DNA of 35,591 nucleotides from a virus, in IMG/VR virus record IMGVR_UViG_3300030098_005293, positions 1 through 35,591 of that record, one strand, 5' to 3'. Positions 5,674-35,591 of this stretch are shown piece after piece. Numbering within the stretch: position 1 is the first letter of the stretch; every line of letters begins with the position of its first letter. The notes beneath the pieces are model-generated. The model was given only the letters and a program-made list of their open reading frames with translations. It was not told the DNA's origin and made no database searches. Made by a program: the position numbers and the translations under genes.

Positions 5674-5893
5674 AGAATTAATTAAAGTAGCTAGAGAAGA
5701 AATAGTTGACTCAGATGAAGATATATCAGCAGATAGATTAAAGAATGCTGCTGCTACAAAGAAACTAGCTATATTCGATGCGTTCGAGATATTAAACAGG
5801 ATTCATGAAGAAGAGAACATGCTTGAAGGAAAACCTATTGAAGAGGAAAAGAAAAGCACTTTTAAAGGATTCGCAGAAGGAAGATCTAAGTAA
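5618..5893 (+). CDS. Small helical protein immediately before the terminase, possible small terminase
   Basis: This 91-residue protein is charged and nearly all helical ('HKAVEELIKVAREEIVD', 'ISADRLKNAAATKKLAIFDA', 'FEILNRIHEEENML'). It lies between the GroES-like gene, which it overlaps by 56 bases in another frame, and the large terminase, with which it shares one base (TAATG). Small terminase subunits are often short helical proteins encoded directly before the large subunit, so this is the best candidate in the window. However, no helix-turn-helix DNA-recognition motif is evident and the length is below the usual 100-200 residues. The start at 5618 gives a complete N-terminus 'MNIKETKKNII'; later ATGs would remove most of the helix. 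Confidence 0.6.
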   Translation: MNIKETKKNIIQAGHKAVEELIKVAREEIVDSDEDISADRLKNAAATKKLAIFDAFEILNRIHEEENMLEGKPIEEEKKSTFKGFAEGRSK

Positions 5894-8127: not shown

Positions 8128-10508
8128 GAGATTCTCACATTAATTTTCCATCTCAAGCGGTAAGCGATCTTGAGAAGATGACCAAAGAGTATGGAGAAAA
8201 AGTCGCGAAAGCTATTAAACACGAATGGTTTGATGGGACAACTAATAAATTTGATGGTAATATAAATAGTTTTCATAAGTTAAGACTATATGCTAGGGGA
8301 GAACAACCTGTTGAAAAATATAAAAACGAATTATCAATTAATGGTGATTTGTCTTATCTTAATTTAGATTGGAAACCTGTTCCAATTATTCCTAAATTTG
8401 TTGATATCGTTGTTAATGGTATGGCACAAAGAAATTATGAGATAAATTGTTTTTCTCAAGATCAATTTGGTATTAGTAAAAGAACTGAGTATATGGAGTC
8501 TATACTTAGAGATATGCGAGCTAAGTTTTATAAGGAAAAAGTTTTTTTAAATACCAATATAAATTTATTTGAAAACAACCCAGAAGAACTACCTGACACA
8601 GAAGATGAGTTAGCGTTACACATGCAGCTTAATTATAAACAGGCTGTTGAAATAGCTGAAGAACAAGCATTAAATGTTTTATTAGAGAATAGTAATTATG
8701 ATTTAATTAGAAGAAGAACATTGTATGACATAGCGACAATAGGTATGGGTGCTACGAAAACAACATTTAATTGGAGTGATGGTGCTAAAGTTGAATATGT
8801 TGATCCAGCTAATTTAGTTTATTCCTATACTGAATCACCTTATTTTGATGACATATATTATGTTGGAGAAGTTAAAGATATTCCGATAAATGAATTAGTT
8901 AAAGAATTTCCTGAATTAACAGAAAGTGAAATTAAAGAGATAACTGAAAACAAAGGTGGTTATGAGAGTCACTATAGACAAGACACTGACAAAAATAAAG
9001 TAGAGGTTTTATATTTTAATTACAAAACACACTCTAATGATGTTTACAAATTAAAAGAAATGGGGACTGGTGCGGAGAAAGTTATAGAAAAAGATGATAC
9101 ATTTAATCCTCCAGAAGATATGGAAGGAAACTTTAGTAGATTAGATAGAGTTGTCGAGGTATTATATGAAGGAGTTTACGTTGTTGGATGTGGAAAGTTG
9201 TTGAGATGGAAGATGGCTGAGAATATGATGAGGAGTGATTCTGATTTTAATAGAGTTAAAATGAGTTATCAAATAGTAGCTCCAAGAATGTATAGAGGTA
9301 GAATTGAGTCTTTGGTTGGTAGAATAACAGGTTTTGCTGATATGATTCAATTAACTCATTTAAAGTTACAACAAGTAATGGCAAGGATGGTGCCAGATGG
9401 TGTTTACTTGGACGCTGACGGTATTGCCGAGATAGATCTTGGAAATGGTACAAACTACAATCCACAAGAAGCCTTAAACATGTTCTTCCAAACTGGTAGT
9501 GTTATTGGTAGAAGTTTTACATCTGAAGGAGATATGAATCCTGGTAAAGTACCAATTCAACAAATACAAAATGGAGCTGGTGGAAATAAGATACAAAGTT
9601 TAATTACAACTTATAATTACTACTTGCAAATGATTAGGGATGTGACTGGACTTAATGAAGCTAGAGACGCAAGTACTCCAGATAGAGACGCTTTAGTTGG
9701 TGTGCAAAAGTTAGCTGCTGCTAATTCAAATACAGCAACTAGACACATACTTCAATCAATGTTGTTTTTAACAGCTGAAGCTGCAGAGTGTTTATCACTT
9801 AGAATATCAGATATAATAGAGTATTCACCAACGAGAGATGCTTTTATTCAAGCTATAGGTTCACATAATGTTGCTACACTAGAAGAATTAAAAGAATTAC
9901 ATCTTTATGATTTTGGTATATTTATCGAATTATTACCAGATGATGAAGAAAAAGCTTTATTAGAAAACAATATTCAGCAATCATTAGCACAGCAATCAAT
10001 TGATTTAGATGACGCTATTGATCTTAGAGAAATTAGGAATATTAAATTAGCTAATCAATTATTGAAAGTTAAAAGAAAAAGAAAAGCAGAGAGAGATCAA
10101 CAAATGCAACAGCAGAATATTCAAGCACAGGCTAGAGCAAATGCTGAACAACAACAAGCCGCTGCTCAAGCTGAGACACAAAAGAATCAAGCTAAAACTC
10201 AAGCTGAAGCACAATTAGAACAAACTAAAAATCAACTTAAAACAGAATTCTTACAAGCTGAAGTTCAAGCGAAAAAAGATTTGATGCAATTTGAGTTTGA
10301 ATTAAATTCTCAAATAAAAAGTATGGAAAGAGAGATTACTGAAAAGAATGAGGCTAAAAGAGAGGATAGAAAAGATTTAAGAGTTGATAGACAAGCAATG
10401 CATCAAAAAGAAATGATCGATCAAAGAAGTGGGGGTGGTTCACTTAAAAACTTTGAATCATCAGGTAATGATATAATTACAGGAGGAGTGGATATTGATC
10501 GATTCTAA
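8124..10508 (+). CDS. Portal protein
   Basis: This 794-residue protein follows the terminase with a four-base overlap and precedes the scaffold-like and capsid genes, the standard place of the portal, the dodecameric ring through which DNA passes. The body has expected features: an N-terminal region with 'FHKLRLYARGEQPVEKY', a mid segment 'YDIATIGMGATKTTFNWSDG', a beta-rich wing ('VEYVDPANLVYSY') and a long stem/crown helical part ('YYLQMIRDVTGLNEARDAS', about residues 503-521). After about residue 640 it changes to a Gln/Ala/Lys-rich coiled coil of some 100 residues ('QQQAAAQAETQKNQAKTQAE'), probably the barrel or an internal extension. The size matches portals of crAss-like and similar short-tailed phages. 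Identification relies on context plus this architecture. Confidence 0.82.
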   Translation: MRDSHINFPSQAVSDLEKMTKEYGEKVAKAIKHEWFDGTTNKFDGNINSFHKLRLYARGEQPVEKYKNELSINGDLSYLNLDWKPVPIIPKFVDIVVNGMAQRNYEINCFSQDQFGISKRTEYMESILRDMRAKFYKEKVFLNTNINLFENNPEELPDTEDELALHMQLNYKQAVEIAEEQALNVLLENSNYDLIRRRTLYDIATIGMGATKTTFNWSDGAKVEYVDPANLVYSYTESPYFDDIYYVGEVKDIPINELVKEFPELTESEIKEITENKGGYESHYRQDTDKNKVEVLYFNYKTHSNDVYKLKEMGTGAEKVIEKDDTFNPPEDMEGNFSRLDRVVEVLYEGVYVVGCGKLLRWKMAENMMRSDSDFNRVKMSYQIVAPRMYRGRIESLVGRITGFADMIQLTHLKLQQVMARMVPDGVYLDADGIAEIDLGNGTNYNPQEALNMFFQTGSVIGRSFTSEGDMNPGKVPIQQIQNGAGGNKIQSLITTYNYYLQMIRDVTGLNEARDASTPDRDALVGVQKLAAANSNTATRHILQSMLFLTAEAAECLSLRISDIIEYSPTRDAFIQAIGSHNVATLEELKELHLYDFGIFIELLPDDEEKALLENNIQQSLAQQSIDLDDAIDLREIRNIKLANQLLKVKRKRKAERDQQMQQQNIQAQARANAEQQQAAAQAETQKNQAKTQAEAQLEQTKNQLKTEFLQAEVQAKKDLMQFEFELNSQIKSMEREITEKNEAKREDRKDLRVDRQAMHQKEMIDQRSGGGSLKNFESSGNDIITGGVDIDRF

Positions 10509-16048: not shown

Positions 16049-19000
16049 ATGTCAGAAATTAAACGTACCTTTCAGGGTGGGAAAATGAATAAAGATCTCG
16101 ACGAGAGAATCGTTCCCAATGGTGAATATAGAGATGCTTTAAATATACAGATAAGAACTTCTGATGGAGATGCTGTTGGCACTGTTCAAAATCTAAAATC
16201 AACTTATAGGGTATGGAACGGTGTGGACAAAAACGATCCTGACAAAAGTTACTATAGGGATTGGATGGGTGACACCAATCTTAACATTAATGGTGAAAAA
16301 TCTTTACCCGAGATAATAGGTAGTGTAACTGACGAAAAAAACGATAAAATATATTTTTTCATAAAAGCCCCTCATTTAGAAGATACTATTAAAATTTTTG
16401 AAGATGGTAACTATGATGCAGTTACTATGATTACTTCAGAGAGAAAATTCAACGACTGTATATTAGAATACAATGTTAATACTAATAGCGAGAAGGCAAT
16501 CGCTGTTGATAATTTCGCTATAATAAATACATTCGCAGAAATAAATCCAACACATCCCCTGGGAGATACTTTTCTTAATGGTGATGAGGTAGAAACCTAC
16601 ACTAGAATTGATGTTAGTACTAGTACCGGTGGAGTAAATAAGTACAGACCTGGTATGACAATTAAAGCTGTGAAAAGTAATGGAACAAATGTGTTTCCTA
16701 ATGGTGAAGTTGTTAGAATCAAAAGCTATAAAGATGGAGCAATAACACTTTATGGTGAACATACAAAAAATATATTTAATTCTAACATTCACGATATAAC
16801 TCACTTTATTTTTGAGCATGATGATAGGCCGTTAAATTTTTCAAATGGAGATGTAAATAATAGCATCAACGCGATTAATGTTATTGATAATTTATTATTT
16901 TGGACAGACAATACGAGCGAACCAAAAAAAATAAATATTGATAGAAGTAGAGAGGGATCAGATGGTTTTTACACGCACACGAAACTATGTGTAACAAATC
17001 CAGCAACTAACAACTATCAAGTTGTAACCACACAAGTTGATAGTGGTTTACTTGATTATCGAAATTCTCCGTGGCTAAAAGAAGAGCACGTTACTGTTAT
17101 AAGGAAAGCCCCGACATATGCTCCAACTCTACACATGAAAAGAACTCACAGAGAGGGACTTAATAATAGTTTTTTAACCGAAACTTATATTGGTATCAAT
17201 AGTGAGGGTAATGACACTGCTGTAGACGACATAATAGTTATAACCAATGACATTTGGTTAGAAACCGTATTTTTCTTTAATGACATAATAGTGTTTAATC
17301 AATTTAACAATAGTTTGGAAGAACCACCTGTTCAATTGAAAGCCAAGTTTTTATGTTACGAAGATACAGATGGAAATTGTACTTGTAGTGACGAAGGTGA
17401 TATTGACGATAGTGACAATTGTGAAGTTACAAATAGAGTTAGATTTCAAATGATAGCTATCGATCCAGGATTAACAGAACATATACATGAGTGGAAGTTT
17501 CATTTAGAGTTAGAAAAACCATTGTATGAATTGAAGATGGGTAGATTTGGTTTAAGATACAAATATGAAGATGGAGAATATTCTAGTTTTGGACCTTGGT
17601 CGGAATTAGCTTTTTTACCAGATGATTATGATTATCAATCAAGAAGAGGATATAATCTAGGAATGGTTAACTCATTAAGAGAGTTGGTTATAAAAGATTT
17701 TATTCCTTATCCAAGACCATTAGATGTGGTAGGTGTTGATATATTGTGGAAAAGTACTGATTCTCCTAGCGTATATGTTATGTCAACTGTTGAAAGAGCT
17801 AAAGATTCAGAATGGGAGGAATTTACCACTGATACATCTAGTAATGATATTAAGACAGGAGAACTACATATAACTTCTGAGATGATACACAAAGTTGTTC
17901 CATCTGATCAAATATTGAGATCTTGGGATAATGTCCCTAGAAGAGCGTTAGCACAAGAGATTGTTGGTAATAGACTTCTATATGGTAACTATGTTCAAGG
18001 ATATGATTTTAAATATCCTGTATCTTTAACTCAAAATATAATAAGTGACACTACACCTTCTTTAAGTAATCCCCAGAAATCTATTAAGACTATTAGAGAT
18101 TATAAATTTGGAATGGTATTTGGAGATAAATATGGTAGAGAAACACCTGTAATGACATCTGGATATGTATTGTCACAAAATGATATAGATAATCCTTACA
18201 TTGCGTTAACTGGTGATGTATCTGTACCGAAAATTTTATCAGCAAAGAAAAACTCAATAGAATTAAGACAAGTGTGGACTAACACAATTAACTCTTTAAA
18301 CGTACCACACGATTGGATTGATTATGTAAAATACTATGTAAAAGAACCTACTAATGAGTATTATAATTTAATAATGGATCATTGGTATTGGGCTGAAGAT
18401 GAACAAAGAAATGTTTGGTTATCATTTAATTCTGCTGATAGAAATAAAGTTGACGAAGAAACACATTTAATATTAAAAAATAAACACAACTCCCAACGAG
18501 CTGTATTAGAGAAAGCTAGATATAAAATTTTAGCTATTGAAAATGATGTACCAGAATACGTTAAAAATGTTCAGCTTGATTTAGGTAAGTGTCCAATGAC
18601 TGAGGCTGCGAATGGAATTACAGTAAATAATCTTATCAATTCTATTAGTTTGGAAACAGTTATGTGGGATCAATGTAGTCAAAGCGTGGGGATTTCAACA
18701 TGTTCATCTCCTACTGATGGACTAACTACTAAAAAATTATATGTCGGTGTTGAACAGTGGAATATTTTTACTGGAACAGTATTGTATGATTGGGATTCAG
18801 GTGAGTTTCATGAATCAGGACAAATTCTTCATCCTCTTGGTAAAGAAATAGAAGGTACTATAAAACTTAGAATTCGTGGAAAACATAATAATAAATATCT
18901 ATATACAAGATGGCAAAATGTTAGTAGTTGGAGAGTTATAAACGCGGACATGGAGTACGCTCAAAGTGGTGAATGGCAGTGGCTAACTCTACCTGTTATT

Positions 19001-22000
19001 GAATTTTCTTTTTCTGAACCATTTGGAGAAGAAATTGACATGTATACTAGGTGGAAAAACATTGTTGGAGAAGAAAATCTAGAAACTGGTAGTCTTTGTT
19101 GTGCTGGTAATTTTGTGATTCCAGATTTAGAATATTTTATAGAACTAAGAGAAGATATACCAGAACACAAAGCACAATATGATGGAAAATTTTTTGCTAA
19201 AGTTGAGGCGGACGGAGTTATGCTATCTAATATTATCGGTTCTTCATCTCAATCTCAACAGTATGTTGTCAAAAGATCTTATCCAGTACATTACGTAAGT
19301 AGCAATAGAAATGGTAATTTAGGACAAGAAATTTCGGGAACGTATACTGGATTCGGCGATGGATGGAATAATGCCGATTTTGATAGTGGTAATCCGGTAC
19401 CATTTTTTGGAATGTTTCCAAGTAGTGATAATGGAATTACCGTAGAAAATATCCAATCAGAGTTTGGTGGAATTAGTGATGGCGAAGGTGAAGGTAGCTG
19501 TCTTAATTTTTTTCAAGATGGGCTGGAGTATCCTGAAGCGGTACAAACTAAAGAGTACTGGGAGTATTTTAGAACACAAGCTTCTGAAACTCATGGAGGA
19601 GGTGACACTTTCAATAACATTGTTGATACTACATTTTTAGATGATGCTAGAATGGTGTATGGTCATTTACCAACTAGTGATTGGGTAGATGAGGATAATT
19701 CAACACCTGAAGGTGGTGGTCCATATACTCCAACTTCTTTTGATACGGGTATTTTGGAAAATAATGATGGTACATTCGGTGCTCAATCAGGAGTTGGTCG
19801 AATGACATTATCTTACTTGGGAGATGAAGAAAATGGCCAACCTCATCCAGGTGCTTTAAAAAATGATCTTAAACAAGTTGGAGCGCTCTTTAGATGGGCT
19901 GGTGATCCATATAATGAAGAAAATATATATCAAGTAATAGCCGTGGATGATGATGATTCTGATTTATCAGGTGAAGATATTAATGGTTATGGTGCTAACT
20001 ATGTAGATAGTGATTGTAGTAATTGCAACACGGCTAATATGTCTGACGGTAATGTTGGGGCATGTCATAGACGAACATATCAGGTTGAATTTAGAAAAAT
20101 TGAACTATTCACAAATGAACTTACTAGTGAAGGTATGCCAATTACACAGTGGGATCCAAGATCAAATATGGATCATTGGGGAGGAGAATATCAAGTGCTT
20201 GATATTGTAGAACTTAGATCAGTGAACTCATATAGTTCTGGAGAAATTAGAGATGGTGCTGTTTGGGAAACTGAACCAAAAAAGAGTACAGAATTAGATA
20301 TATATTACGAAGCTTCAGATGCTATACCAGTTACATTAAATGAAAACAATATATACAATTTTGCTCCAATCGATAGTTCAATTGGTGCTTGGAGATCTTC
20401 TAGTGATGGATGGACTAACTTAAATATTGGTAATGCATATAATTATAGAAGTTGGATTGGTGATGAAAATAAAGATCAAGCTTTTGTCCATATTAGAAAA
20501 TTTGATAGTGATGCGGACGCATGGGTTAATTGTGGTGATTTAGAAGAATCAGATGAAGTTACTTTCACTCATAACAACGGAACGATAACAAGGACTAAAA
20601 TTACTGGGGTTGGTAAATACTCTATTGATTCGTATGATGAGGATAGTTTGAATAGCACTCTTGTTGTGGAACCACAATGGATTGAAGTCGAGAATTCTGC
20701 AAGTTATAGTGATATAGGAACTGAATTTGATGTACAACTATACTTTAGTGGTAGTCAGAGTGAAACAACTACTGTTGTAAATCCAAACGACAGTTCTCAA
20801 ACAAAAGTTGTGCCAAAAATATACATAACGAGACAATCAGTCAAGTGGCCTAAAGGTGGTGGTGCACAAGAATGTGTCGCGGCAGGTCAAGATGAACTAG
20901 GAGAACTACCTATAACTTCCTATGAGGTCTACGATGACGCAGAGGGTGATTTTTCGTCATATGCTCTATCTAATGGATACAACAATGGATTACCTCTTGA
21001 CACTAAAGTCACTATAACTGAAGTAGTGACAGATGTAGCGAGTGGTAGTTTTATAACAACAGATGATGATGGCGTTATTGTAGCACCTAATGCAACTGAT
21101 CAAAACCAATTTGATCCAACAAATACTTTCAGTTTTACGAATGCCGCTTGGCTAGAAGTAAAATTATCATATAATGATTACGATTTATTTCCTACAGATA
21201 CTACTGGTAGTCCGGATCCGGAAGCTGACGATTACAATTCTAATTATGGAAATTATAGAGGTGTCATATGGAATTTATCGCGATTTTCTACTGCTCCAAC
21301 TGGTATATACGCTATTGATACAAAAGTTTGGAAATATCCAATTATACTTGGATGGCATAATTGCTATTCATTTGGTAATGGTGCTGAATCTGATAGAATA
21401 AGAGATGATTACAATGCTCCACAGATAGATAACGGGGTTAAGGTTTCTACAACATTCTCTGGTTATAGTGAAGAAACCAAAGGAAGTGGAATGATATATT
21501 CTGGTTTGTATAATTCTATATCAGAAGTTAATGATCTTAATGAGTTTAATATATCTCAAAAGATTACAAAAAATTTAAATCCTGCCTATGGCTCTATTCA
21601 AGCTTTAAAAACAAGAGATACTGATGTGGTTGTATTAGCTGAAGATAAAGTTTTAAAAGTTTTAGCGAGTAAAGACGCTCTTTATAATGCTGACGGTAAT
21701 CCGCAATTAACAGCAACAGACAAAGTTTTAGGTACAGCAGTACCATTTGTTGGTGATTATGGAATATCACAAAATCCTGAATCATTAGCTTGGGATCAAT
21801 TTAGATTATACTTCACAGATAAGCAAAGAGGTGCTGTATTAAGATTGTCAAGAGACGGTTTAACACCAATTTCAAATGTCGGTATGCGAACTTGGTTTAG
21901 AGAAAATCTTCCAAATGCTCAAAGTTTATTAGGGACATTTGACACTGTAAATGGTGAGTATAATTTAACACTTCATACTAATAGTGAAGATGACGATAAA

Positions 22001-23200
22001 ACAATATCATTTAACGAAGGTGCAAAAGGATGGATTAGTTTTAAATCGTTTATTCCTAATGCGGGTGAATCTGTTTCTGGTAAATATATAACAGCATATA
22101 AATATGAAATATGGGATCATTATAATAAGTTAGAAGATACGTATAGTACATTTTATGGGACAGAATACGAATCTAGCATTAAGTTAATATTCAATGATTT
22201 ACCTGGATCTATTAAATCATTTAAAACTATAAACTATGAGGGTAGTCAATCAAAGATTGATGAATTTGCAACAATTAATCAAGATGATTTAGATTATACT
22301 GATGGCGAATATTATAATATATCCGGAAAAAAAGGTTGGTATGTTGATTCGTTTGAAACAGACTTGCAAAGCGGTAGTGTTCCAGAGTTTATAAATAAAG
22401 AAGGTAAGTGGTTTAATAAAATAAATGGAATAATAACTGAGACAAGTAATATAGATACTAGTGAATTTACCGTACAAGGTATTGGTGATGTAACTTGGAT
22501 ATACAACTACGATGTTGATAGTGGTGATGATGGAGTTATACCAGATGCTACAATTCCTGGTTGCACAGATCCAACAGCATGTAACTACGATAACCAAGCA
22601 ACAATTACTGATTACTCATGCGTGTATCCGGAAGCAGGGTATGATTGTGATGGTAACTGCCTAAGTAATTATAACGACTTTGATGATGGAAATGGATGCG
22701 TGGAAATTGTCTATGGTTGCACAGATAACACATATGTAGAGTACAACCCACTAGCTAACACATGCACACCTCTTGATACAGATGGTGATGGTGTAATAGA
22801 TGTACAAAGTGGAGATGCAGATGGTGATGGTGTTTGTGATGACTGTGTTACTCCAATAACGTATGGTTGTATGGATCCTAACGCGTGTAACTCTGGAGAT
22901 TATTTATATCCCGAAAACACTTTATGTTTCTATGAAGCTGATTGTAATGGGGATTGTGGTGGAACCGCGGTAGAAACGAATTGTGGTTGTGGTCAGCCAG
23001 AAGCAGAAACGGGATATAATTGTGACGGTACTTGCGCATCAGGATATCAACTCGACGAGTATGGTATTTGCGTTGAAGCACCTGATGATCAAATTTGGAG
23101 TATTAGTAATTACACGGATGATTCATTAGCAACAATAGAAGGTGTTTGTCCAGAAGGTCAAGTTTGGGATGCTGATCAAGGAATTTGTGTTGATGGTTAA
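16049..23200 (+). CDS. Giant tail stabilization-like protein with Cys-rich C-terminal extension
   Basis: This 2383-residue protein opens with 'FQGGKMNKDLDERIVPNGEY' and 'RDALNIQIRTSDGDAVGTVQ', which I recognise as the start of 'stabilization protein'-type tail proteins of crAss-like and related marine phages. The domain resumes near residues 1830-1990 with 'YGSIQALKTRDTDVVVLAED', 'LTATDKVLGTAVPFVGDYGI' and 'SRDGLTPISNVGMRTWFREN', a propeller-like pattern. Between them lie more than 1400 residues of beta-rich, Asp/Ser/Tyr-rich sequence with scattered Cys clusters (about 435-455 and 1315-1335). The last 213 residues (from about 2171) hold 22 cysteines, two 'GCxDPxAC' units, 'DTDGDGVIDVQSGDADGDGV' Ca-binding-like repeats, and 'YDCDGNC/YNCDGTC' motifs resembling secreted marine Bacteroidota proteins. 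It probably forms the tail nozzle or fibre-bearing complex; host contact by the extension is inference. Confidence 0.78.
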   Translation: MSEIKRTFQGGKMNKDLDERIVPNGEYRDALNIQIRTSDGDAVGTVQNLKSTYRVWNGVDKNDPDKSYYRDWMGDTNLNINGEKSLPEIIGSVTDEKNDKIYFFIKAPHLEDTIKIFEDGNYDAVTMITSERKFNDCILEYNVNTNSEKAIAVDNFAIINTFAEINPTHPLGDTFLNGDEVETYTRIDVSTSTGGVNKYRPGMTIKAVKSNGTNVFPNGEVVRIKSYKDGAITLYGEHTKNIFNSNIHDITHFIFEHDDRPLNFSNGDVNNSINAINVIDNLLFWTDNTSEPKKINIDRSREGSDGFYTHTKLCVTNPATNNYQVVTTQVDSGLLDYRNSPWLKEEHVTVIRKAPTYAPTLHMKRTHREGLNNSFLTETYIGINSEGNDTAVDDIIVITNDIWLETVFFFNDIIVFNQFNNSLEEPPVQLKAKFLCYEDTDGNCTCSDEGDIDDSDNCEVTNRVRFQMIAIDPGLTEHIHEWKFHLELEKPLYELKMGRFGLRYKYEDGEYSSFGPWSELAFLPDDYDYQSRRGYNLGMVNSLRELVIKDFIPYPRPLDVVGVDILWKSTDSPSVYVMSTVERAKDSEWEEFTTDTSSNDIKTGELHITSEMIHKVVPSDQILRSWDNVPRRALAQEIVGNRLLYGNYVQGYDFKYPVSLTQNIISDTTPSLSNPQKSIKTIRDYKFGMVFGDKYGRETPVMTSGYVLSQNDIDNPYIALTGDVSVPKILSAKKNSIELRQVWTNTINSLNVPHDWIDYVKYYVKEPTNEYYNLIMDHWYWAEDEQRNVWLSFNSADRNKVDEETHLILKNKHNSQRAVLEKARYKILAIENDVPEYVKNVQLDLGKCPMTEAANGITVNNLINSISLETVMWDQCSQSVGISTCSSPTDGLTTKKLYVGVEQWNIFTGTVLYDWDSGEFHESGQILHPLGKEIEGTIKLRIRGKHNNKYLYTRWQNVSSWRVINADMEYAQSGEWQWLTLPVIEFSFSEPFGEEIDMYTRWKNIVGEENLETGSLCCAGNFVIPDLEYFIELREDIPEHKAQYDGKFFAKVEADGVMLSNIIGSSSQSQQYVVKRSYPVHYVSSNRNGNLGQEISGTYTGFGDGWNNADFDSGNPVPFFGMFPSSDNGITVENIQSEFGGISDGEGEGSCLNFFQDGLEYPEAVQTKEYWEYFRTQASETHGGGDTFNNIVDTTFLDDARMVYGHLPTSDWVDEDNSTPEGGGPYTPTSFDTGILENNDGTFGAQSGVGRMTLSYLGDEENGQPHPGALKNDLKQVGALFRWAGDPYNEENIYQVIAVDDDDSDLSGEDINGYGANYVDSDCSNCNTANMSDGNVGACHRRTYQVEFRKIELFTNELTSEGMPITQWDPRSNMDHWGGEYQVLDIVELRSVNSYSSGEIRDGAVWETEPKKSTELDIYYEASDAIPVTLNENNIYNFAPIDSSIGAWRSSSDGWTNLNIGNAYNYRSWIGDENKDQAFVHIRKFDSDADAWVNCGDLEESDEVTFTHNNGTITRTKITGVGKYSIDSYDEDSLNSTLVVEPQWIEVENSASYSDIGTEFDVQLYFSGSQSETTTVVNPNDSSQTKVVPKIYITRQSVKWPKGGGAQECVAAGQDELGELPITSYEVYDDAEGDFSSYALSNGYNNGLPLDTKVTITEVVTDVASGSFITTDDDGVIVAPNATDQNQFDPTNTFSFTNAAWLEVKLSYNDYDLFPTDTTGSPDPEADDYNSNYGNYRGVIWNLSRFSTAPTGIYAIDTKVWKYPIILGWHNCYSFGNGAESDRIRDDYNAPQIDNGVKVSTTFSGYSEETKGSGMIYSGLYNSISEVNDLNEFNISQKITKNLNPAYGSIQALKTRDTDVVVLAEDKVLKVLASKDALYNADGNPQLTATDKVLGTAVPFVGDYGISQNPESLAWDQFRLYFTDKQRGAVLRLSRDGLTPISNVGMRTWFRENLPNAQSLLGTFDTVNGEYNLTLHTNSEDDDKTISFNEGAKGWISFKSFIPNAGESVSGKYITAYKYEIWDHYNKLEDTYSTFYGTEYESSIKLIFNDLPGSIKSFKTINYEGSQSKIDEFATINQDDLDYTDGEYYNISGKKGWYVDSFETDLQSGSVPEFINKEGKWFNKINGIITETSNIDTSEFTVQGIGDVTWIYNYDVDSGDDGVIPDATIPGCTDPTACNYDNQATITDYSCVYPEAGYDCDGNCLSNYNDFDDGNGCVEIVYGCTDNTYVEYNPLANTCTPLDTDGDGVIDVQSGDADGDGVCDDCVTPITYGCMDPNACNSGDYLYPENTLCFYEADCNGDCGGTAVETNCGCGQPEAETGYNCDGTCASGYQLDEYGICVEAPDDQIWSISNYTDDSLATIEGVCPEGQVWDADQGICVDG

Positions 23201-24247: not shown

Positions 24248-24258
24248 TAAATATTTAT

Positions 24259-27503: not shown

Positions 27504-28205
27504 ATGTCAACATCAAAATCATCACCATTTAAAATAGATCCAATAACTATTGGGGCAGTTAGTTGGGGTATTGGTGCACTCGGCACAATAATAACTGGTA
27601 TAAACTCATCTAAGAAAGCTAAAGCAGCAGCAGAGGAAGCTCAAAGAAAAGAAGAGCAAGCTAGAAGAGAGATGCAGAGGATGAAAAATATATATGCGAG
27701 TGTTGATACTAGTAATCCATACTTAAATATGGAAAATAAAATGGAAGACTTGACTATTAATCAAAAGCAAGCTGAGTTTCAAGCACAGCAATTTCAACAA
27801 AGTCAAGCAAACATCTTAGACACAATGAGAGGTGCTGCTGGTGGATCTGGTATTGCTGCTGTCGCACAGGCATTAGCACAACAAGGACAACTCGCCTCAC
27901 AACAAGCATCAGCCTCAATAGGTGCTCAAGAAGCTAGAAATCAAACGTTAAGACAACAAGAAGCTTCTAAAATACAAGCTATGCAGAGACAGGGTGAATT
28001 ACAATCTAGACAAATGCAAATGCAAAAACATGGAACGTTATTAGGTATGGCTGCGCAAGAAGCTGGCGCGTATCATGCGCAGAGAATGCAAGCCGAACAA
28101 CAGGCTAACGATGCTGCAGCTAGTGGATTTCAAGGAGTTTTAAATAGTATAACTAGTGGTGTACAAACTGCTGGTCAACTTGCCGCTAGTGGCGCATTCG
28201 GTTAA
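27504..28205 (+). CDS. Putative internal virion (ejection) protein, Ala/Gln-rich helical
   Basis: In this 233-residue protein a hydrophobic Gly-rich segment at about residues 14-34 ('IGAVSWGIGALGTIITGINS') precedes a long charged and then Gln/Ala-rich helical region ('KKAKAAAEEAQRKEEQARRE', 'MRGAAGGSGIAAVAQALAQQ', 'LQSRQMQMQKHGTLLGMAAQ'). The combination of one membrane-inserting segment and an Ala/Gln-rich amphipathic rod is common in small internal or ejection proteins of short-tailed phages that help form the DNA channel across the cell envelope. 'DTSNPYLNMENKMEDLTINQ' in the first third is a segment I recall from marine phage homologues. It is followed 14 bases later by a second helical protein. 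Confidence 0.65.
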   Translation: MSTSKSSPFKIDPITIGAVSWGIGALGTIITGINSSKKAKAAAEEAQRKEEQARREMQRMKNIYASVDTSNPYLNMENKMEDLTINQKQAEFQAQQFQQSQANILDTMRGAAGGSGIAAVAQALAQQGQLASQQASASIGAQEARNQTLRQQEASKIQAMQRQGELQSRQMQMQKHGTLLGMAAQEAGAYHAQRMQAEQQANDAAASGFQGVLNSITSGVQTAGQLAASGAFG

Positions 28206-28219
28206 AAAATTATTTATAT

Positions 28220-29563
28220 ATGAGTACTAAAGCAGATGCAGGTATATTGAGCGCATATGGAGATTATGCAAGCGAACTTTCTAAAACAATAGATTATACT
28301 ACCCCAGCGAAAGCGGTTGCACAAGGATGGAGCAATCTCGGTGGAGCTGGAATGAATTTTGCTATTATAGAGCAACAAAGAATAGAAGCGGAGAGGCGTG
28401 CAGAAGAAAAAAGAAAAAAAGAAGAACAACTCAAGAAGATAAAAGCGTGGAAACAATCTATGAAAGGTCTCCCAGCTGAAGTCCAGAAACAACAAGAAGA
28501 TCACTATTCTCAAGTGGCAGATTTAATTTATAAAGGTGAGATTACTGAAGAAGAAGCTAATCAAGATTTAGACGCAAGAACTATATCAAATGATAACATA
28601 AATGCTTTTAAAGATGAAATAGCTGAAATATATGAAGCTGAACAGAGAGATGGAGGTGTAACTGATAGTTTTAGATTAGGTAATCCTGATGATATTTATG
28701 AAAATCAAACTGAAGAAATTCTTGGTATATTTGACGGTGAAACTGAGATGATGTGGAATGACGAAACTAACACATATGGATTCATGATGAATAGTAAGGA
28801 GAAGAAAATTGAGAATGAAACAGAGATTGAAAATTTAAATGCTCAATTAAATGAACTTCACGATGAGTATGATTTCGGCGGTATCATGAGTCATGAAGAT
28901 TACATTAATCAATGGCAAGAGATAGAAAATAGAGTGGTAGAACTTAAAGATGATATAAATGACGGTAGTAAAGTGTGGACAAGTCATCATGATATTAGAG
29001 AAATGGTGATTGAAAATAGTTTTGACAAATCAATTAATAATACTATAACTAAGATTTCTAGCGACATGTATAAGATAGGCTTTAGTGGAGAGGGATTTGA
29101 TAGGGAAAGTATCCGTAACGGTATAGTTGGACAGATAATTGAAGAAGGTAGAATGAGATCGTTAAAAGAAGATCCTCATTTAAATCTTTTTGATGAAGAT
29201 GGTGAACCAAGAGTATGGAAAGATGATATGAAAGAAGCTATAGCAAAAGGACCTACTGGAGAAGGAACAACATATGAAGATTTAGGTTTAACTCCAGAGA
29301 TAATAATGGCTCTAGATCCTACACCTCCTAAAGGAGTAATAATTGGAGATGACGTAGATGTAATTTTCAATAAAATAGATAACGACGATAAGTTAAGTAG
29401 AAAGTTCTTAGCAGACTATTTCTTAAATCACTATGAGAAGCAACATCGAAAGGGTGTAAATGCTAAAAAAGCTAGAGAGAAAAAACAAGAAGAAGAGAGT
29501 AGTAGTGAAGCAGGCGGGATGACTGGAACAATAGGGCCAGATGGTTATTGGGTTCCTAACTAA
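28220..29563 (+). CDS. Putative internal virion protein, helical
   Basis: This 447-residue protein is mostly charged and helical. It has 'GWSNLGGAGMNFAIIEQQRI' near residue 40, a Lys/Glu helix ('EAERRAEEKRKKEEQLKKIK') and further long coils ('NETEIENLNAQLNELHDEYD'). An acidic C-terminal third ends in a Gly-rich tail 'GGMTGTIGPDGYWVPN'. There is no enzyme motif, cysteine or membrane segment. Between the Ala/Gln-rich protein and the giant multidomain protein, it fits the place of internal or ejected virion proteins in short-tailed phages (T7 gp14-gp16-like arrangement by position only). Function otherwise unknown. Confidence 0.65.
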   Translation: MSTKADAGILSAYGDYASELSKTIDYTTPAKAVAQGWSNLGGAGMNFAIIEQQRIEAERRAEEKRKKEEQLKKIKAWKQSMKGLPAEVQKQQEDHYSQVADLIYKGEITEEEANQDLDARTISNDNINAFKDEIAEIYEAEQRDGGVTDSFRLGNPDDIYENQTEEILGIFDGETEMMWNDETNTYGFMMNSKEKKIENETEIENLNAQLNELHDEYDFGGIMSHEDYINQWQEIENRVVELKDDINDGSKVWTSHHDIREMVIENSFDKSINNTITKISSDMYKIGFSGEGFDRESIRNGIVGQIIEEGRMRSLKEDPHLNLFDEDGEPRVWKDDMKEAIAKGPTGEGTTYEDLGLTPEIIMALDPTPPKGVIIGDDVDVIFNKIDNDDKLSRKFLADYFLNHYEKQHRKGVNAKKAREKKQEEESSSEAGGMTGTIGPDGYWVPN

Positions 29564-29597: not shown

Positions 29598-32500
29598 ATG
29601 ATAGAATACATATTAAATGGTCAACCTATTAAGGTTAGATTAGAAGATAGAGAATTATTTGAAAAAAATAATCCAACAGCTAAATTAAAAAGTGCCACAC
29701 AAGATGGTGCTCAAATCAATTTGCAAACCGGTAATATAAAAAAAGTCGAGCCGGGAAAGTCGCAAGGGACGAGTCAGTCCCAAAACAATCAACAACAAAT
29801 AAATACGGGATCCAATTTGGGAGATGGTTTTTTGGAATCACCAAAGAATGATTTAGAAATCAATAAAAACAAAGTAGATAGTTTAAATAATGTTATACAA
29901 AGTTTTAATTATGAAGCTAAATTAGAACAAATTGAAAAACAAATAAAAGAAATAGCAAGTGCTAATTATGAATCTGGAGATATTGATGCGCAGAACCTAA
30001 AGATAGATGATGCGAATAAAAAAATAGAAATATTAACTAAAGATTATAATAATCTATATACTGATTATTTAGATAAATATAATGAATATGATATAGCAAG
30101 AAAAAACTATAACAAATTAATAGGACAAAGCAAAGAAGAAAAAACAGAAAAACAAGAGGTTAAAAAACCTAAAATTAACTTATCAGAGGTTGGTGTTGGT
30201 TTTGCTACCAAGGGTTTAGCTGGGGTTGCTGAGGCTGTTGCAAGACCTTATTTAAAAAACAAAATACTAAGAGCTGGTGAAGGAGCTGTTTCAATGATAA
30301 ATAATTTTGTTAAAGGTTATGAAACTGGAGAAGTTGCTTGGTTAGACCCTATGATTGATGATGCTTTTCCATTTATTAAAAAAATGAAAGTAGGTGCTAA
30401 ATTATTAGAATCTAAAGGAATTGATGTGCCAGATTATCTTGGACCAATTTCACTTGATAGTCCAAGAGAAAGAAGAGAGCGATATGAATCATTTATGCTT
30501 GAAGCTATAGACAGGGGAATACCACTAGAGCAAGCTCAAAAACTAGATCCAACAAATAGAATTAAATTAGAAGGAGTACTAGATTGGTTTGATAAACACA
30601 TTTATAGGCGTGTTGATGAAAATGGAGATCCATTAGACTATATGCAATTATTTGAAAAAGCTAAATCTCCTAAAGATTATTTTGAAGCTACGGACGCGTT
30701 TGTCGATGATGTGTTCGGTGCTATGCCCTCTCTAATAGTGAGTAGAATACCCTATGGTATTGGTCCCGCTTTTATGGGTACCGGTATGTACATGGATAAC
30801 TTTGAAAGAGAACTTTATAAAAGAGGTATTAACGACGAAACAACTAGAAATCAAATTGTTAAAGATTCTTGGATAAGTGGCTCAGCTGATTTTGTTACAG
30901 AACTTTTTGGTGGTAGATTTTTAAATAAAATAATAGGGAGTGGTATTGGTAAAGAAAAAGCTAAAGACTTATTAACCCAACTACCAAAAGTTGTTGCTAA
31001 AAAATTAGGCTTTGCTGGTGTAACTGAGTTTGCGACAGAGGGTGCAGCTGGATGGTTAAATTTAAAATCTGATGAATGGTCTTATGACGAAGAGTATACT
31101 ACAAAAGAAAAATTTAGAGCATTTATAAGGGATGGATTTATTGGAATGTTTTTAGGTACTGGCGCAGCCAGCACATCTATACCTAATAAAAAAGATGTTT
31201 ACGCGTATGTGTCTCCTCAAACATTCAAACAAGATCAATTGAAGATTGAGCAAGAAATACTTGATTTAACTAGAGATGCTGATAATGCTACTGGAAAATC
31301 TAAAGATATTTTAAACAAAAAAATAAAAGATTTAAAAAATAAAAAGAAACAAAACGAGAAGAATCTTTTTGATTTCTTTGAAAATCTAACTGATAAAGAA
31401 AAACAAATATACGCCAACAATCTAGATGCACAAGGTGAACAGCTAGATATATTATTTGATAAACGACACAGTAAAAAAACAAGAGAAGAAGCTGTAAAAA
31501 AATACGACGAAGCTATAAATGCTAATAATAATTTCTTTGATGGTACTGATATTAACTACGATCCATTAGCGGAAAAATTTATAGGTACAACACTTAGAGC
31601 TAGTGAAAAAATTAGAAAAAATAAAAATTTTTTTGGTTTTAATAAAAGCAATTTAGATATAGAATATGTTGAGTCAGACGCTAGATTAAAAGAATTGTCT
31701 GAACAACTTCCCGGATTTGAAGAATCTGATGGATTATTTTTTGAACAAGAGGATGGTAAAAATAAAATATATATAAATACTAAGGTAGCATCCATGACTG
31801 GACAAACTAATGTTTTAGGTCATGAGTATTTACATGCTATTGTTTCAAATGCTTTTAGTGAGGGTATTGGTGCTAGTAATTTAAAGGGTTCTGTAACTTC
31901 ATTTAAAGAGTATTTAATTAAAACTGGTAATGAAGATTTAGTAAATAGAATAGAAAGAAGATTAGCTAGACAATATGGGGGACGTAATGCTGAAGGTGAA
32001 ATAATAAGAGATGATCATGGCTTGGTTAAAACTGAAAGATTAAAGGATCAAGAAGAATACTTTAATATATTTTCTGATATAATAAGTAAAGAAAAAATTG
32101 AAGCTGTTGAATCCAAATCAGCTGGAATTAAAAACTCTTTTAGAGCTTTAAAGAGAGGTTTTGGTTTTGGTGAAGTGGACTTTCAAAGTGGTCAGGAAGT
32201 ATTTGACTTCTTAGTTGATTACAACACTAACATGCGCAGAGCTAGTTTACTAGGAACGCTGACATCGAAGGGTATAGCTAAGGTTAGTTTAAAAGGTCTT
32301 GAAGCTCAAATAGACGAGCAAGGAAAAAGTGATGTTATAAAAGATGATACGAAAACAACAAAACCAAAAACTAAAGTAACTTCTAAAGCTGATAGAATTA
32401 AAGCTTTAGATAAAACTTTATCAAAAAAAGATAGAGCTTTTGTTGACCTTATGAGAAAGAAGGGTAAGAGTGAGAAAATGATTAATCAGAAAATAAAAGA

Positions 32501-35500
32501 TTCTGCTCAAAACACGGGAAAAGGAAATGAGTTATTAGAAAAATATAAAGCAGAAGATACGTTAGCAAATCCAGAAGGAAAATCAAAAGCTGAATTAATT
32601 TCTGCATATAGTACAGTATTTACAGATACTCATCAACCAGTACAAGTAATCAATTATGCATTAAATAACGAGCTTGGTGGTGAGCAACAAGAAAAAATTA
32701 ACCAACTCATCGCTGATTATGAAGCTTGGGCTAAAGATAAAACAAAACCTATAGTAAAAAAATCTAAATCTAAAAATCCTAAACTAGATAAACTAGGTAA
32801 AACTGATAAAGACGGAAAACCATTTAATAGACAAACTTGGGAAAGTGAAGGGTATAATAGAGCTATGACTGCTATTGAGAATGACGAGTTCGTAAAAAAT
32901 ATAATTAGAAGTAAACACAAAGCTAAATCAAAAATGTCTCCAACATTTGCTGAAGACGTTATAGCTTCCCCTGAGTTTCAAAACATGGTTAAACGTTTTA
33001 ATAGAGGTAGATGGGGAACTAAAAATGAAAACGAAAGCTTATTTGCTTATATAAATAAACAATTAGAATGGAGAGCAGGAGATGTTTATAATAGATTCAA
33101 AGATCAATTTGAAGGCAAGAAAGTTGAAGCAGATGCTGTAACTACAGAAGGACAACCAGTGGTTCAAGTTGAAGACGTAAGTGCTAACATGGAGACGCTT
33201 ACAGATAATATAAATTATTTTGAAACAGAAGTTCAACCTGAAAATACTGAAAGTAAAACTGAACAATCTAAACTTAGAAAAGAAATTGGCATAGGTAACT
33301 TAGGTAAAAGTGAAATATTTAAAAAAGTTAGAACAGCATTAGCAACTTCAAAAGCTGTAGATGAAAAAGGATTTATAAAAGATTATGAAAAAAATCTAGG
33401 AAACTTATTAGAACCTACAATAGCTAGAATACTAAATGATCCAGCGAAATTAAAGAAATTTAGAAAAGGAATATTAGAAGCTATACCAATTAAAACATTG
33501 GTTCAAATGCAGAAGTTTTTACCTGAAAAAATATTTATTAAAGATCACGGTAGACAAACTAATTTAACTAACCTATCTAAGTTTGTTGAAAAGGGTTTGT
33601 TGCCAGCTGATATACTAAATAATACTCCTGAAAGTAAAAAGAGAAGAGCGGCTGGTGTTAAAGTTTATGAGAGATTAGATACAACAACAAAACAATTTGA
33701 AAACTATATTGATGCTGAAGCTATAAATCCTAAGACAGGTAAACGATCTGGCACTAGGGGAAATAATAGAGCTAAAGTAATTAGTGAGGTTTCTAAAGCA
33801 ATAGGTAAAGATGCTACACCAGAAACATTGACTCCAGAGTTTGTTGAAGATTATTTAAACATAAAAGATTTAAAAGGTAAAATAACTCCAGAAAAAGTTA
33901 TTGAAAACATTAATGAACAAATTGAAAGAAGTGCTAATTTAAAGTTTAGTAAAAGTGCTGAGGTGGTTAATGAGATTATTGCTCAAGTTGATCCCAACTT
34001 TGAGCAAGATGGTATAAGTCATATTGACAAGATTATTGAGACGGTGTTGGGTGAAGGAGAAGGAATATATAGACACGCAACTAAAGGAGAAATTGATAAT
34101 TTTTTCTATGATGTGGAAAATGTATTGATTCCTAATTTACCACCAGATCTTATTACAAGAACAGTCATAAGACCTAGTAATAGAATTTTTGGTAAAAATA
34201 GAGGTAGAGATAAAATAATTGTAGATGGTAAAGAAACAACTATAAATGATTATTACAATAAAAAAAGAGCTGACATATTTGAGGACAAACATGGTGGAGG
34301 TTACTTAACGCCGGAACAAAGAAGAGATAAGGGACTAGAACCTTTAAAGGTTGGAAAAGAATTTACTGGCAAAGGTAAGAATTATAAATATGGAAAACCA
34401 TATGGTGATATATTTGGTAGGACTGAGGCAGAGATTTTAAGATCTGAAAAAGATGGTACAGTTGATCGAGTGAACGAAATGCATGAAAGCATGCATTATC
34501 AATTATGGCGAATAATACATAATTCTATTCAACAAGATCCTAATAACGCCAAGGTGTGGGGTAATTATTTAAGTTTAGTTGGACAAGACACAGAGCACCC
34601 TCATAGGATGGGAGCTGAATATGTAGGTCATTCAAAAAATCCTAAAGGCTACAAAGGGAAGGTGTATGAGTGGGAGCACTCTATGCAAGCAACTAGATCT
34701 TATTTATATCTATTACATTCTTCTTTAGGGGGATATGATTTTGATACAGCTTACGAGCTTGTGATGAAAAATTTTAAACTAATGGCTTTAGATAACTATG
34801 ATAATCAAAAATTAAATAATGCTGGTAGAGGAAAAAGTATGGGTCCAAATTGGGATTTATTAAGTGACTCTTTTCTTGATAGGTATTTTCATCCAGATGT
34901 TGCTAAAGTAAGAAACGGGATAGATCCTAAAAAACAAATACACATAAGCGGTAAGACATTCGCTGAAGAATATAACATAAACTCAGATGGTAAACCTGCT
35001 ATAATTAAAAAGTCTCAATCAGAAATAAATAATATTAATAATGCTATAAAAGCTAAAAATAATATTATTAAGTTTAGTAAAAATGGTAAAGCTAAAGGTA
35101 TGTCAACGTTTGATTTTGACGAAACATTAATTATTGATGGTGAGAATTTTGTGATAGCTACCAATCCTAAAACTGGAGAAAAAGTAAATATAAAATCTGG
35201 TGATTGGCCTATTAAAGGTCCTGAACTTGATGCCCAAGGATATGAGTTTAACTTTAATGATTTTGTTAATGTTAGAGGTGGAGTTGATGGACCACTGCTT
35301 CAAAAAATGAAAAATCAAATAAAGAAATATGGATCAGAAAATGTTTTTGTATTAACAGCTAGACCTCAAAGTGCTGACGTAGCTATACACGAATGGTTGA
35401 AATCTAAAGGTATAAATATACCATTTAAAAATATAACTGGATTAGCGGATAGTAAAGGTGAAGCTAAAGCTGATTGGATGTTAGAAAAGTTTGCAGAAGG

Positions 35501-35591
35501 ATATAACGACATGTACTTTGTTGATGACGCTTTATCAAATGTAACAGCAGTTAGAGAGGTATTAGATCAATTAGATATTAAATCAAAAGTT
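29598..35591 (+). CDS. Giant multidomain virion-type protein: HExxH peptidase-like and HAD-like domains (3' end outside window)
   Basis: Open for 1998 codons from the ATG at 29598 to the window edge with no stop, so the C-terminus is missing. Visible order: helical Asn/Lys-rich N-terminus; hydrophobic Gly-rich region about residues 365-530 ('IPYGIGPAFMGTGMYMDNF', 'FIRDGFIGMFLGTGAAS'), possibly membrane-active; HExxH motif 'LGHEYLHAIV' (His742, Glu743, His746) with downstream 'QEEYFNIFSD' (Glu819/820), a possible gluzincin-type metallopeptidase; Lys-rich linkers; a second HExxH, 'NEMHESMHYQLW' (His1629-His1633); and a HAD-like domain with 'TFDFDET' (Asp1839, Asp1841), 'VFVLTARPQ' (Thr1920) and 'YFVDDALSN' (Asp1976-Asp1977). 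I recall similar giant proteins in uncultured marine phages. Being last in the internal-virion block, it may be packaged and ejected. Catalysis is inferred from motifs only. Confidence 0.82.
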   Translation, partial: MIEYILNGQPIKVRLEDRELFEKNNPTAKLKSATQDGAQINLQTGNIKKVEPGKSQGTSQSQNNQQQINTGSNLGDGFLESPKNDLEINKNKVDSLNNVIQSFNYEAKLEQIEKQIKEIASANYESGDIDAQNLKIDDANKKIEILTKDYNNLYTDYLDKYNEYDIARKNYNKLIGQSKEEKTEKQEVKKPKINLSEVGVGFATKGLAGVAEAVARPYLKNKILRAGEGAVSMINNFVKGYETGEVAWLDPMIDDAFPFIKKMKVGAKLLESKGIDVPDYLGPISLDSPRERRERYESFMLEAIDRGIPLEQAQKLDPTNRIKLEGVLDWFDKHIYRRVDENGDPLDYMQLFEKAKSPKDYFEATDAFVDDVFGAMPSLIVSRIPYGIGPAFMGTGMYMDNFERELYKRGINDETTRNQIVKDSWISGSADFVTELFGGRFLNKIIGSGIGKEKAKDLLTQLPKVVAKKLGFAGVTEFATEGAAGWLNLKSDEWSYDEEYTTKEKFRAFIRDGFIGMFLGTGAASTSIPNKKDVYAYVSPQTFKQDQLKIEQEILDLTRDADNATGKSKDILNKKIKDLKNKKKQNEKNLFDFFENLTDKEKQIYANNLDAQGEQLDILFDKRHSKKTREEAVKKYDEAINANNNFFDGTDINYDPLAEKFIGTTLRASEKIRKNKNFFGFNKSNLDIEYVESDARLKELSEQLPGFEESDGLFFEQEDGKNKIYINTKVASMTGQTNVLGHEYLHAIVSNAFSEGIGASNLKGSVTSFKEYLIKTGNEDLVNRIERRLARQYGGRNAEGEIIRDDHGLVKTERLKDQEEYFNIFSDIISKEKIEAVESKSAGIKNSFRALKRGFGFGEVDFQSGQEVFDFLVDYNTNMRRASLLGTLTSKGIAKVSLKGLEAQIDEQGKSDVIKDDTKTTKPKTKVTSKADRIKALDKTLSKKDRAFVDLMRKKGKSEKMINQKIKDSAQNTGKGNELLEKYKAEDTLANPEGKSKAELISAYSTVFTDTHQPVQVINYALNNELGGEQQEKINQLIADYEAWAKDKTKPIVKKSKSKNPKLDKLGKTDKDGKPFNRQTWESEGYNRAMTAIENDEFVKNIIRSKHKAKSKMSPTFAEDVIASPEFQNMVKRFNRGRWGTKNENESLFAYINKQLEWRAGDVYNRFKDQFEGKKVEADAVTTEGQPVVQVEDVSANMETLTDNINYFETEVQPENTESKTEQSKLRKEIGIGNLGKSEIFKKVRTALATSKAVDEKGFIKDYEKNLGNLLEPTIARILNDPAKLKKFRKGILEAIPIKTLVQMQKFLPEKIFIKDHGRQTNLTNLSKFVEKGLLPADILNNTPESKKRRAAGVKVYERLDTTTKQFENYIDAEAINPKTGKRSGTRGNNRAKVISEVSKAIGKDATPETLTPEFVEDYLNIKDLKGKITPEKVIENINEQIERSANLKFSKSAEVVNEIIAQVDPNFEQDGISHIDKIIETVLGEGEGIYRHATKGEIDNFFYDVENVLIPNLPPDLITRTVIRPSNRIFGKNRGRDKIIVDGKETTINDYYNKKRADIFEDKHGGGYLTPEQRRDKGLEPLKVGKEFTGKGKNYKYGKPYGDIFGRTEAEILRSEKDGTVDRVNEMHESMHYQLWRIIHNSIQQDPNNAKVWGNYLSLVGQDTEHPHRMGAEYVGHSKNPKGYKGKVYEWEHSMQATRSYLYLLHSSLGGYDFDTAYELVMKNFKLMALDNYDNQKLNNAGRGKSMGPNWDLLSDSFLDRYFHPDVAKVRNGIDPKKQIHISGKTFAEEYNINSDGKPAIIKKSQSEINNINNAIKAKNNIIKFSKNGKAKGMSTFDFDETLIIDGENFVIATNPKTGEKVNIKSGDWPIKGPELDAQGYEFNFNDFVNVRGGVDGPLLQKMKNQIKKYGSENVFVLTARPQSADVAIHEWLKSKGINIPFKNITGLADSKGEAKADWMLEKFAEGYNDMYFVDDALSNVTAVREVLDQLDIKSKV

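What the first reader, a model, noticed from the sequence alone, without database searches (positions are those of the whole stretch)
35085..35591. HAD-phosphatase-like domain fused to a putative ejected virion protein
Motif I 'DFDET', motif II 'LTARP' and motif IV 'VDDALSN' are in correct order and spacing for a HAD hydrolase, similar to small nucleotide/polynucleotide phosphatases. Fused at the end of a giant peptidase-like virion protein, it could act on host nucleic acid ends or nucleotides, for instance as an anti-defence or RNA/DNA end-repair activity delivered with the genome.
Basis: partly seen in the sequence, partly recalled or inferred. Interest (0 to 1): 0.68.

Follow-up and report, generated by a model that had tools for sequence, protein, structure and literature searches.

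The report
Phosphatase module in phage ejection protein
A marine crAss-like phage carries an intact HAD phosphatase domain inside a giant protein probably injected into bacteria with its DNA; in relatives a kinase is inserted into the same phosphatase, which suggests a delivered enzyme that edits phosphate groups, perhaps on nucleic-acid ends.

Summary
In detail: the window's last ORF (29598 to the contig end, 1998 aa visible) carries a HAD phosphatase domain at aa ~1833-1995. Motif I (D1839, D1841, T1843), T1920, R1922, K1957, D1976 and D1977 are invariant in 80 close homologues; motifs I, II, IV and the lysine also in 188 more divergent ones. dN/dS is 0.03-0.1.

Two corrections. The domain is not at the protein's end: all 66 complete homologues (2258-3939 aa) continue 682-1049 aa past it into a conserved C-terminal module. 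The phage is crAss-like: 96 of 100 sampled contigs with this domain encode a related portal. The HAD is the most widely shared part of the visible giant protein, which has exactly one HExxH motif in 66/66.

New: in many relatives a complete P-loop kinase (zeta-toxin/polynucleotide-kinase type) sits inside the HAD, in its cap hairpin. Of the best 80 kinase loci, 62 are nested so, 3 are cut there, 2 have it just behind the HAD; in 5 giants it replaces the HAD. This favours a phosphate-editing module on nucleotides or nucleic-acid ends. Substrate unproven: no RNA ligase was found, though most larger contigs encode a DNA ligase. Virion packaging rests on synteny only.

The parts
29598..35591 (+). 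Giant multidomain protein, first 1998 aa; open at the contig 3' end. Complete homologues are 2258-3939 aa.
31821..31835 (+). HExxH zincin-type metallopeptidase motif (HEYLH, aa 742). Exactly one HExxH per protein in 66/66 complete homologues, against 1.2 expected in total from shuffles, 832-1195 aa before HAD motif I.
   Evidence: no Pfam zincin match for the window protein
34344..34817 (+). Conserved domain of unknown function just before the HAD (aa 1583-1740; H-P-H-R-M-G-A-E ... Y-E-W-E-H pattern). The second HExxH of the window (aa 1629) is not conserved in homologues.
35073..35084 (+). FSKN linker (aa 1826-1829) immediately before the HAD; one case of the FS[KRE][STNKG] linker motif enriched at module borders of these giants.
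35094..35582 (+). HAD-superfamily phosphatase domain (aa ~1833-1995), with the flap hairpin after motif I where relatives carry a kinase insert.
35112..35126 (+). HAD motif I DFDET (nucleophile D1839, acid/base D1841).
35352..35366 (+). HAD motif II LTARP (T1920, R1922).
35466..35468 (+). HAD motif III-type lysine K1957 (GEAKADW).
35523..35540 (+). HAD motif IV DDALSN (D1976, D1977) in GYNDMYFVDDA.
27504..28205 (+). T7 gp14-like/internal virion protein-like gene (233 aa) directly upstream; similar genes precede the giant in relatives (by eye).
28220..29563 (+). Charged coiled-coil-like protein (447 aa) between the gp14-like gene and the giant; same place as 352-514 aa proteins in relatives.
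16049..23200 (+). crAss muzzle-type tail protein (2383 aa; Pfam crAss_MUZ_C, phrog_14478).
8124..10508 (+). crAss-like portal protein (phrog_6547); 52-80% identical portals in 96 of 100 sampled contigs carrying this HAD.
5893..8127 (+). Terminase large subunit (phrog_6681).

Best explanation
The feature is a functional HAD-superfamily phosphatase domain, one module of a giant polyvalent protein of an uncultured marine crAss-like clade. The giant is most likely packed in the head and ejected with the DNA (inferred), folds or is processed in the host cell (inferred; the single zincin motif is the obvious candidate processing enzyme), and the HAD then removes phosphate monoesters through an aspartyl-phosphate intermediate (D1839 nucleophile, D1841 acid/base, T1920 and K1957 phosphate binding, D1976/D1977 for Mg2+; inferred from the superfamily). 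The most likely substrates are nucleotide-type phosphates, above all 3'-phosphates on nucleic-acid ends. Where the phosphatase is joined to the P-loop kinase inserted in its cap or placed behind it, the two would make a kinase/phosphatase pair like T4 Pnkp. In the window only the phosphatase half is visible, and the contig ends where relatives may carry the kinase.
For: Invariant catalytic set in 81 and 188 sequences; purifying selection; the HAD is the most shared part of the visible giant, about 209 relatives at 54% identity against at most 58 at 23-44% elsewhere. The AF2 model is of good confidence; Foldseek finds viral HADs including Pnk/Pnkp phosphatase domains, and among the top 50 PDB matches a Pnkp1 entry (4xru) has the highest TM-score over the query (0.49). 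phrog_415 'polynucleotide kinase' is matched by 40/57 members. A kinase of AAA_33/zeta type (E 9e-10 to 4e-16) is joined to the HAD in all 15 giant ORFs of the first set that carry it and in 64 of the best 80 kinase loci, plus 3 cut by contig ends. The nested model matches T4 polynucleotide kinase/phosphatase over about 350 columns and Clostridium polynucleotide kinase at TMt 0.74. Gene order beside gp14-like genes and a syntenic giant deposited as 'structural protein' in Elemovirus fit an ejected protein.
Against: No biochemical or proteomic data. PDB matches of the HAD model alone are all above E 0.01 and profile matches to PDB are not significant. Pfam PNK3P is not matched. The best fold match of the nested model is zeta toxin, and the kinase lacks the Arg three residues after the Asp that T4 Pnk uses (recalled, not tested). 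No RtcB and no RNA ligase distinct from the DNA ligase was found. Most close homologues, as far as seen, have the HAD without the kinase, and some giants have the kinase without the HAD, so they are not an obligate pair.
Confidence: 0.45

Rival explanations
1. The HAD is a small-molecule nucleotidase: it dephosphorylates nucleotides or nucleotide signals made by host defence or stress systems, delivered with the genome as an immediate counter-signal, with no role on polynucleotide ends.
For: Same catalytic anatomy; acid phosphatase, Ceg4/Lem4 and 5'-nucleotidase structures are also among the weak PDB matches; a single member matches Acid_phosphat_B; delivered signal-degrading enzymes are proposed for polyvalent proteins (PMC5512222, PMC7824862).
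Against: The largest phage-family signal is to polynucleotide kinase families, and the partner domain is a P-loop kinase of the PNK/zeta group.
Confidence: 0.27
2. The kinase insert is a zeta-type UDP-GlcNAc kinase and the HAD acts on the same sugar-nucleotide or cell-wall pathway; the module weakens or reprograms the cell wall during DNA entry.
For: Zeta toxin is the best Pfam match for one kinase and the top Foldseek match; zeta-like kinases are reported in polyvalent proteins and fused to phage MuF domains (PMC5512222); a related uncultured-virus giant is annotated UDP-GlcNAc kinase.
Against: The HAD occurs without the kinase in most close relatives, so it needs its own substrate; its family matches point to polynucleotide kinase, not sugar phosphatases, apart from phrog_1238 in 13 of 57.
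Confidence: 0.15
3. The domain is an ordinary late or structural module: it acts on phage proteins or DNA during assembly, or has only a scaffold role, and is not active in the newly infected host.
For: The gene lies in the late structural block; no proteomics shows delivery. In two relatives (ctfjg026, Elemovirus) the giants in the same place lack the HAD, so it is not needed for ejection as such.
Against: A scaffold role does not explain full conservation of all catalytic residues, strong purifying selection and linkage with an intact kinase (Walker A, lid arginines).
Confidence: 0.13

Closest known systems
T4-type polynucleotide kinase 3'-phosphatase (T4 Pnkp; Pnkp1 of the Capnocytophaga Pnkp1-Rnl-Hen1 complex, PMC4411300)
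   Same: HAD phosphatase combined with a P-loop kinase of the AAA_33 group in one polypeptide; fold matches of the nested model and phrog_415 matches.
   Different: Here the HAD comes first and the kinase is inserted in its cap hairpin or follows it, all inside a 2300-3900 aa zincin-motif protein; sequence similarity is marginal; no RNA ligase was found.
Polyvalent proteins of phages (Iyer et al. 2017, PMC5512222)
   Same: Giant multidomain phage protein with a zincin-type motif and exchangeable enzymatic modules, thought to be delivered with the DNA; zeta-like kinases are on the known list.
   Different: The main text of that survey has no mention of phosphatase, crAss-like phages or HAD domains; a kinase nested in a HAD was not found in the papers searched.
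Crassvirales ejected cargo (phi-crAss001 gp45-gp50, PMC10172136) and Elemovirus giant 'structural protein' (MT497118)
   Same: Same order of phage (portal, muzzle); very large cargo proteins proposed to be ejected ahead of DNA; Elemovirus has a syntenic giant of at least 3667 aa with one HExxH.
   Different: The largest phi-crAss001 cargo proteins are RNA-polymerase related; the Elemovirus giant has no detectable HAD, kinase or the C-terminal module.
HAD families PHROG 415 'polynucleotide kinase' and Pfam DUF2608
   Same: Significant sequence matches, mainly over motifs II-IV or III-IV.
   Different: Weak and partial; neither family fixes a substrate for this domain.

Membership tests
HAD superfamily phosphatase | Motif I DxD(x)T, motif II S/T, motif III K, motif IV DD in order | tested here: met
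   invariant in 81 close and 188 wider sequences
HAD superfamily phosphatase | Rossmann-like core with squiggle/flap after motif I | tested here: met
   AF2 pLDDT 86.6, alternating alpha/beta order and a hairpin after motif I; significant Foldseek matches to viral models; PDB matches weak, E above 0.01
HAD superfamily phosphatase | Mg2+-dependent phosphatase activity | not testable with these tools
   needs biochemistry
PNKP (polynucleotide kinase 3'-phosphatase) | Match to the Pfam PNK3P phosphatase family | tested here: not met
   not among window hits up to E 5 nor in 57 members at E 0.01
PNKP (polynucleotide kinase 3'-phosphatase) | Kinase and phosphatase domains in one polypeptide | tested here: inconclusive
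   met in many relatives, nested or in tandem; not visible in the truncated window protein; kinase type PNK versus zeta not resolved
PNKP (polynucleotide kinase 3'-phosphatase) | RNA ligase partner, for the RNA-repair reading | tested here: inconclusive
   RtcB absent with a working control; T4 Rnl1 search rang nowhere, so absence not shown; the RNA_ligase hits lie at the same places as DNA-ligase hits and score higher there
Phage polyvalent protein | Giant multidomain protein with zincin-type motif encoded in the structural block | tested here: met
   one HExxH in 66/66 proteins versus 1.2 expected in total; gene order. Zincin domain itself not recognised by Pfam
Phage polyvalent protein | Packaged and delivered with the genome | not testable with these tools
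   only synteny and a depositor's 'structural protein' label in Elemovirus
Crassvirales (host phage of the module) | crAss-type portal, terminase and muzzle protein | tested here: met
   phrog_6547, phrog_6681, crAss_MUZ_C; related portal in 96 of 100 contigs

The most novel reading that the evidence does not exclude
A marine crAss-like clade delivers, inside its giant ejection protein, a nucleic-acid end-healing enzyme in which a 5'-kinase has been inserted into the cap of a 3'-phosphatase, so that one ejected module can restore ligatable ends in phage DNA or cleaved tRNA in the first moments of infection.
Probability: 0.25. Interest if true: 0.8.

Novelty: new variant of a known kind. Interest (0 to 1): 0.5.

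Why it matters
If right, it adds a phosphatase, and a kinase grown into the phosphatase's cap, to the enzymes phages may deliver with their DNA, in an uncultured marine crAss-like clade. The cap position gives a clear structural hypothesis (a kinase acting as the lid of a phosphatase) and the module is small enough (about 190 aa alone, 373 aa with the kinase) to express and assay directly.

Tried and rejected
tblastn of the HAD, the rest of the visible protein and the C-terminal module against 50,697 phage records: no match. HMM search of ctfjg026 and of 50 kb of the 77 kb Maribacter phage Panino record: no HAD or C-terminal module; same for the Elemovirus giant. PDB sequence search with two profiles: only chance matches to ResA and, at E about 2, mammalian PNKP. 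The idea that the window's second HExxH (aa 1629) is a second peptidase: rejected, not conserved. The idea that the RNA_ligase hits are RNA ligases: rejected, the same loci score about twice as high as DNA ligase. The idea that nested HADs with no 'DFD' had lost motif I: rejected, they read DLDDT, DLDGT or DADDT. The idea that kinase and HAD are an obligate pair: rejected, HAD-only and kinase-only giants exist. The FS[KRE] motif as a conserved processing site: enriched at borders but present in only 16-32% of them, kept as a lead.

Full report
Observation. The last ORF of the window runs from 29598 to the contig end (1998 aa, no stop). A scan of IMG/VR with this stretch gave 219 relatives, the best 80 kept, and with the alignment 272. 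In the window and 80 loci the residues D1839, F1840, D1841, E1842, T1843, T1920, A1921, R1922, K1957, D1976 and D1977 never vary. In 188 full-length domains, the most divergent selected pair 36% identical, the D.D.T, TAR, K and GYND.YF.DDA signatures are still invariant. dN/dS in six pairs is about 0.03-0.1. This is a real, intact HAD domain under purifying selection.

Where it sits. It is not at the end of the protein. All 66 homologues with both ends present (2258-3939 aa) continue 682-1049 aa after the HAD into a conserved module, and the window is simply cut there. Each of the 66 has exactly one HExxH motif, against 1.2 expected in all 66 together, 832-1195 aa before motif I; its surroundings vary widely and Pfam recognises no zincin domain in the window protein, so 'peptidase-like' rests on the motif. 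Along the visible window protein the HAD is by far the most shared stretch: about 209 relatives at 54% identity, against at most 58 at 23-44% elsewhere.

Host phage. The window has a crAss-type terminase, portal and muzzle protein. A related portal (52-80% identical) is present in 96 of 100 sampled contigs that carry the HAD, so the module belongs, in this sample, to a marine crAss-like clade. Cultured crAss-like phages have the portal at 40-46% but gave no tblastn match to the HAD, the visible protein or the C-terminal module. The giant follows a gp14-like gene and a charged coiled-coil-like gene, as in relatives, and Elemovirus has a syntenic giant with one HExxH deposited as 'structural protein' but without the HAD. 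crAss001 packs giant cargo proteins that are proposed to be ejected ahead of the DNA (PMC10172136). Delivery into the host is therefore likely but inferred.

Family of the HAD. The AlphaFold2 model has pLDDT 86.6 and pTM 0.79. Foldseek against viral models finds uncultured-phage giants and, further down, Pnk/Pnkp phosphatase domains and a 'Swiss Army Knife' HAD; against PDB all matches are weak (best E 0.019), with a Pnkp1 entry highest in TM-score over the query among the top 50 (0.49). PHROG 415 'polynucleotide kinase' is matched by 40 of 57 diverse members and Pfam DUF2608 by 37. Pfam PNK3P is not matched. So it is a HAD phosphatase nearest to phage polynucleotide phosphatases, but not a member of a named PNKP family.

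The kinase. In some relatives a complete P-loop kinase of about 200 aa (Pfam AAA_33 and Zeta_toxin, E 9e-10 to 4e-16; aligned) sits inside the HAD, in the hairpin after motif I where HADs carry caps, or directly behind it. A search led by the kinase instead of the HAD removes that ascertainment: of the best 80 loci, 62 are nested (57 by script, 5 more on inspection, with motif I spelt DLD or DAD), 3 are cut by the contig end at that point, 2 are in tandem, 1 has the kinase elsewhere in a HAD giant, and in 5 giants (L298, L304, L305, L306, L308) the kinase alone stands directly before the same C-terminal module; the other 7 are smaller separate genes. The model of the nested form has modest confidence (pLDDT 75.6, pTM 0.51) and matches zeta toxin, T4 Pnkp over about 350 columns and Clostridium polynucleotide kinase. 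Kinase and phosphatase are thus repeatedly combined, but each also occurs alone.

Function. I take the HAD to be a delivered phosphatase acting on nucleotide-type phosphates, most likely nucleic-acid 3' ends, with the kinase adding the 5' activity where present. The conserved catalytic set, the nested architecture and the family matches are shown; activity, delivery, processing and substrate are inferred. An ATP-dependent DNA ligase is encoded in 23 of 37 contigs, including most of those above 60 kb. RtcB is absent from 26 contigs with a working control; the T4 Rnl1 search found nothing but had no positive control. A DNA-end role is therefore at least as likely as tRNA repair.

Linkers. The motif FS[KRE][STNKG] occurs 271 times in 194 giants against 94 in shuffles, but 46 against 45 in other ORFs of the same loci. 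It is found within 60 aa after HAD motif IV in 61 of 188 proteins (random windows 3.9%) and within 45 aa before motif I in 27 of 172 (3.2%). These may be processing sites for the zincin or plain module joints.

Novelty. Polyvalent proteins, zeta-like kinases in them, HAD end-repair enzymes in phages and crAss cargo are all known. A HAD phosphatase as the most conserved part of a crAss-like giant, and a kinase nested in its cap, were not found in the papers searched, which does not prove they are undescribed.

Noticed in passing
L111:7544-8662 (and L141, L147, L178, L196, L197, L109, L155, L171, L209): P-loop kinase inserted inside the HAD after motif I, between the flap strands; part of the main argument but not of the finding as given.
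   Followed up: yes
L298, L304, L305, L306, L308: Giants in which the same kinase stands alone before the conserved C-terminal module, with no HAD detected.
   Followed up: partly
L122 and L188, between HAD and C-terminal module: Extra module of about 130-150 aa, followed by a repeat of the HAD's C-terminal border sequence, as if inserted by recombination at the border.
   Followed up: no
34344-34817: Conserved domain of unknown function before the HAD (HPHRMGAEYVG ... YEWEHSMQATR), shared with some relatives.
   Followed up: no
L001 giant, C-terminus (aa ~2657-2685): Short Cys/His stretch with a sub-threshold match to the NCBIfam HGG_STG domain at the very end of the giant.
   Followed up: no
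G012 (contig of L027), 32937-33695 and 20328-21908: ORFs that look like a sigma factor and GroEL; no giant RNA-polymerase ORF apparent among its long ORFs, judged by eye.
   Followed up: no
577-1461: Two adjacent similar small ORFs (139 and 140 aa), apparently a tandem duplication.
   Followed up: no
23213-25284: Two adjacent paralogous ORFs (344 and 341 aa) of unknown function after the muzzle gene.
   Followed up: no
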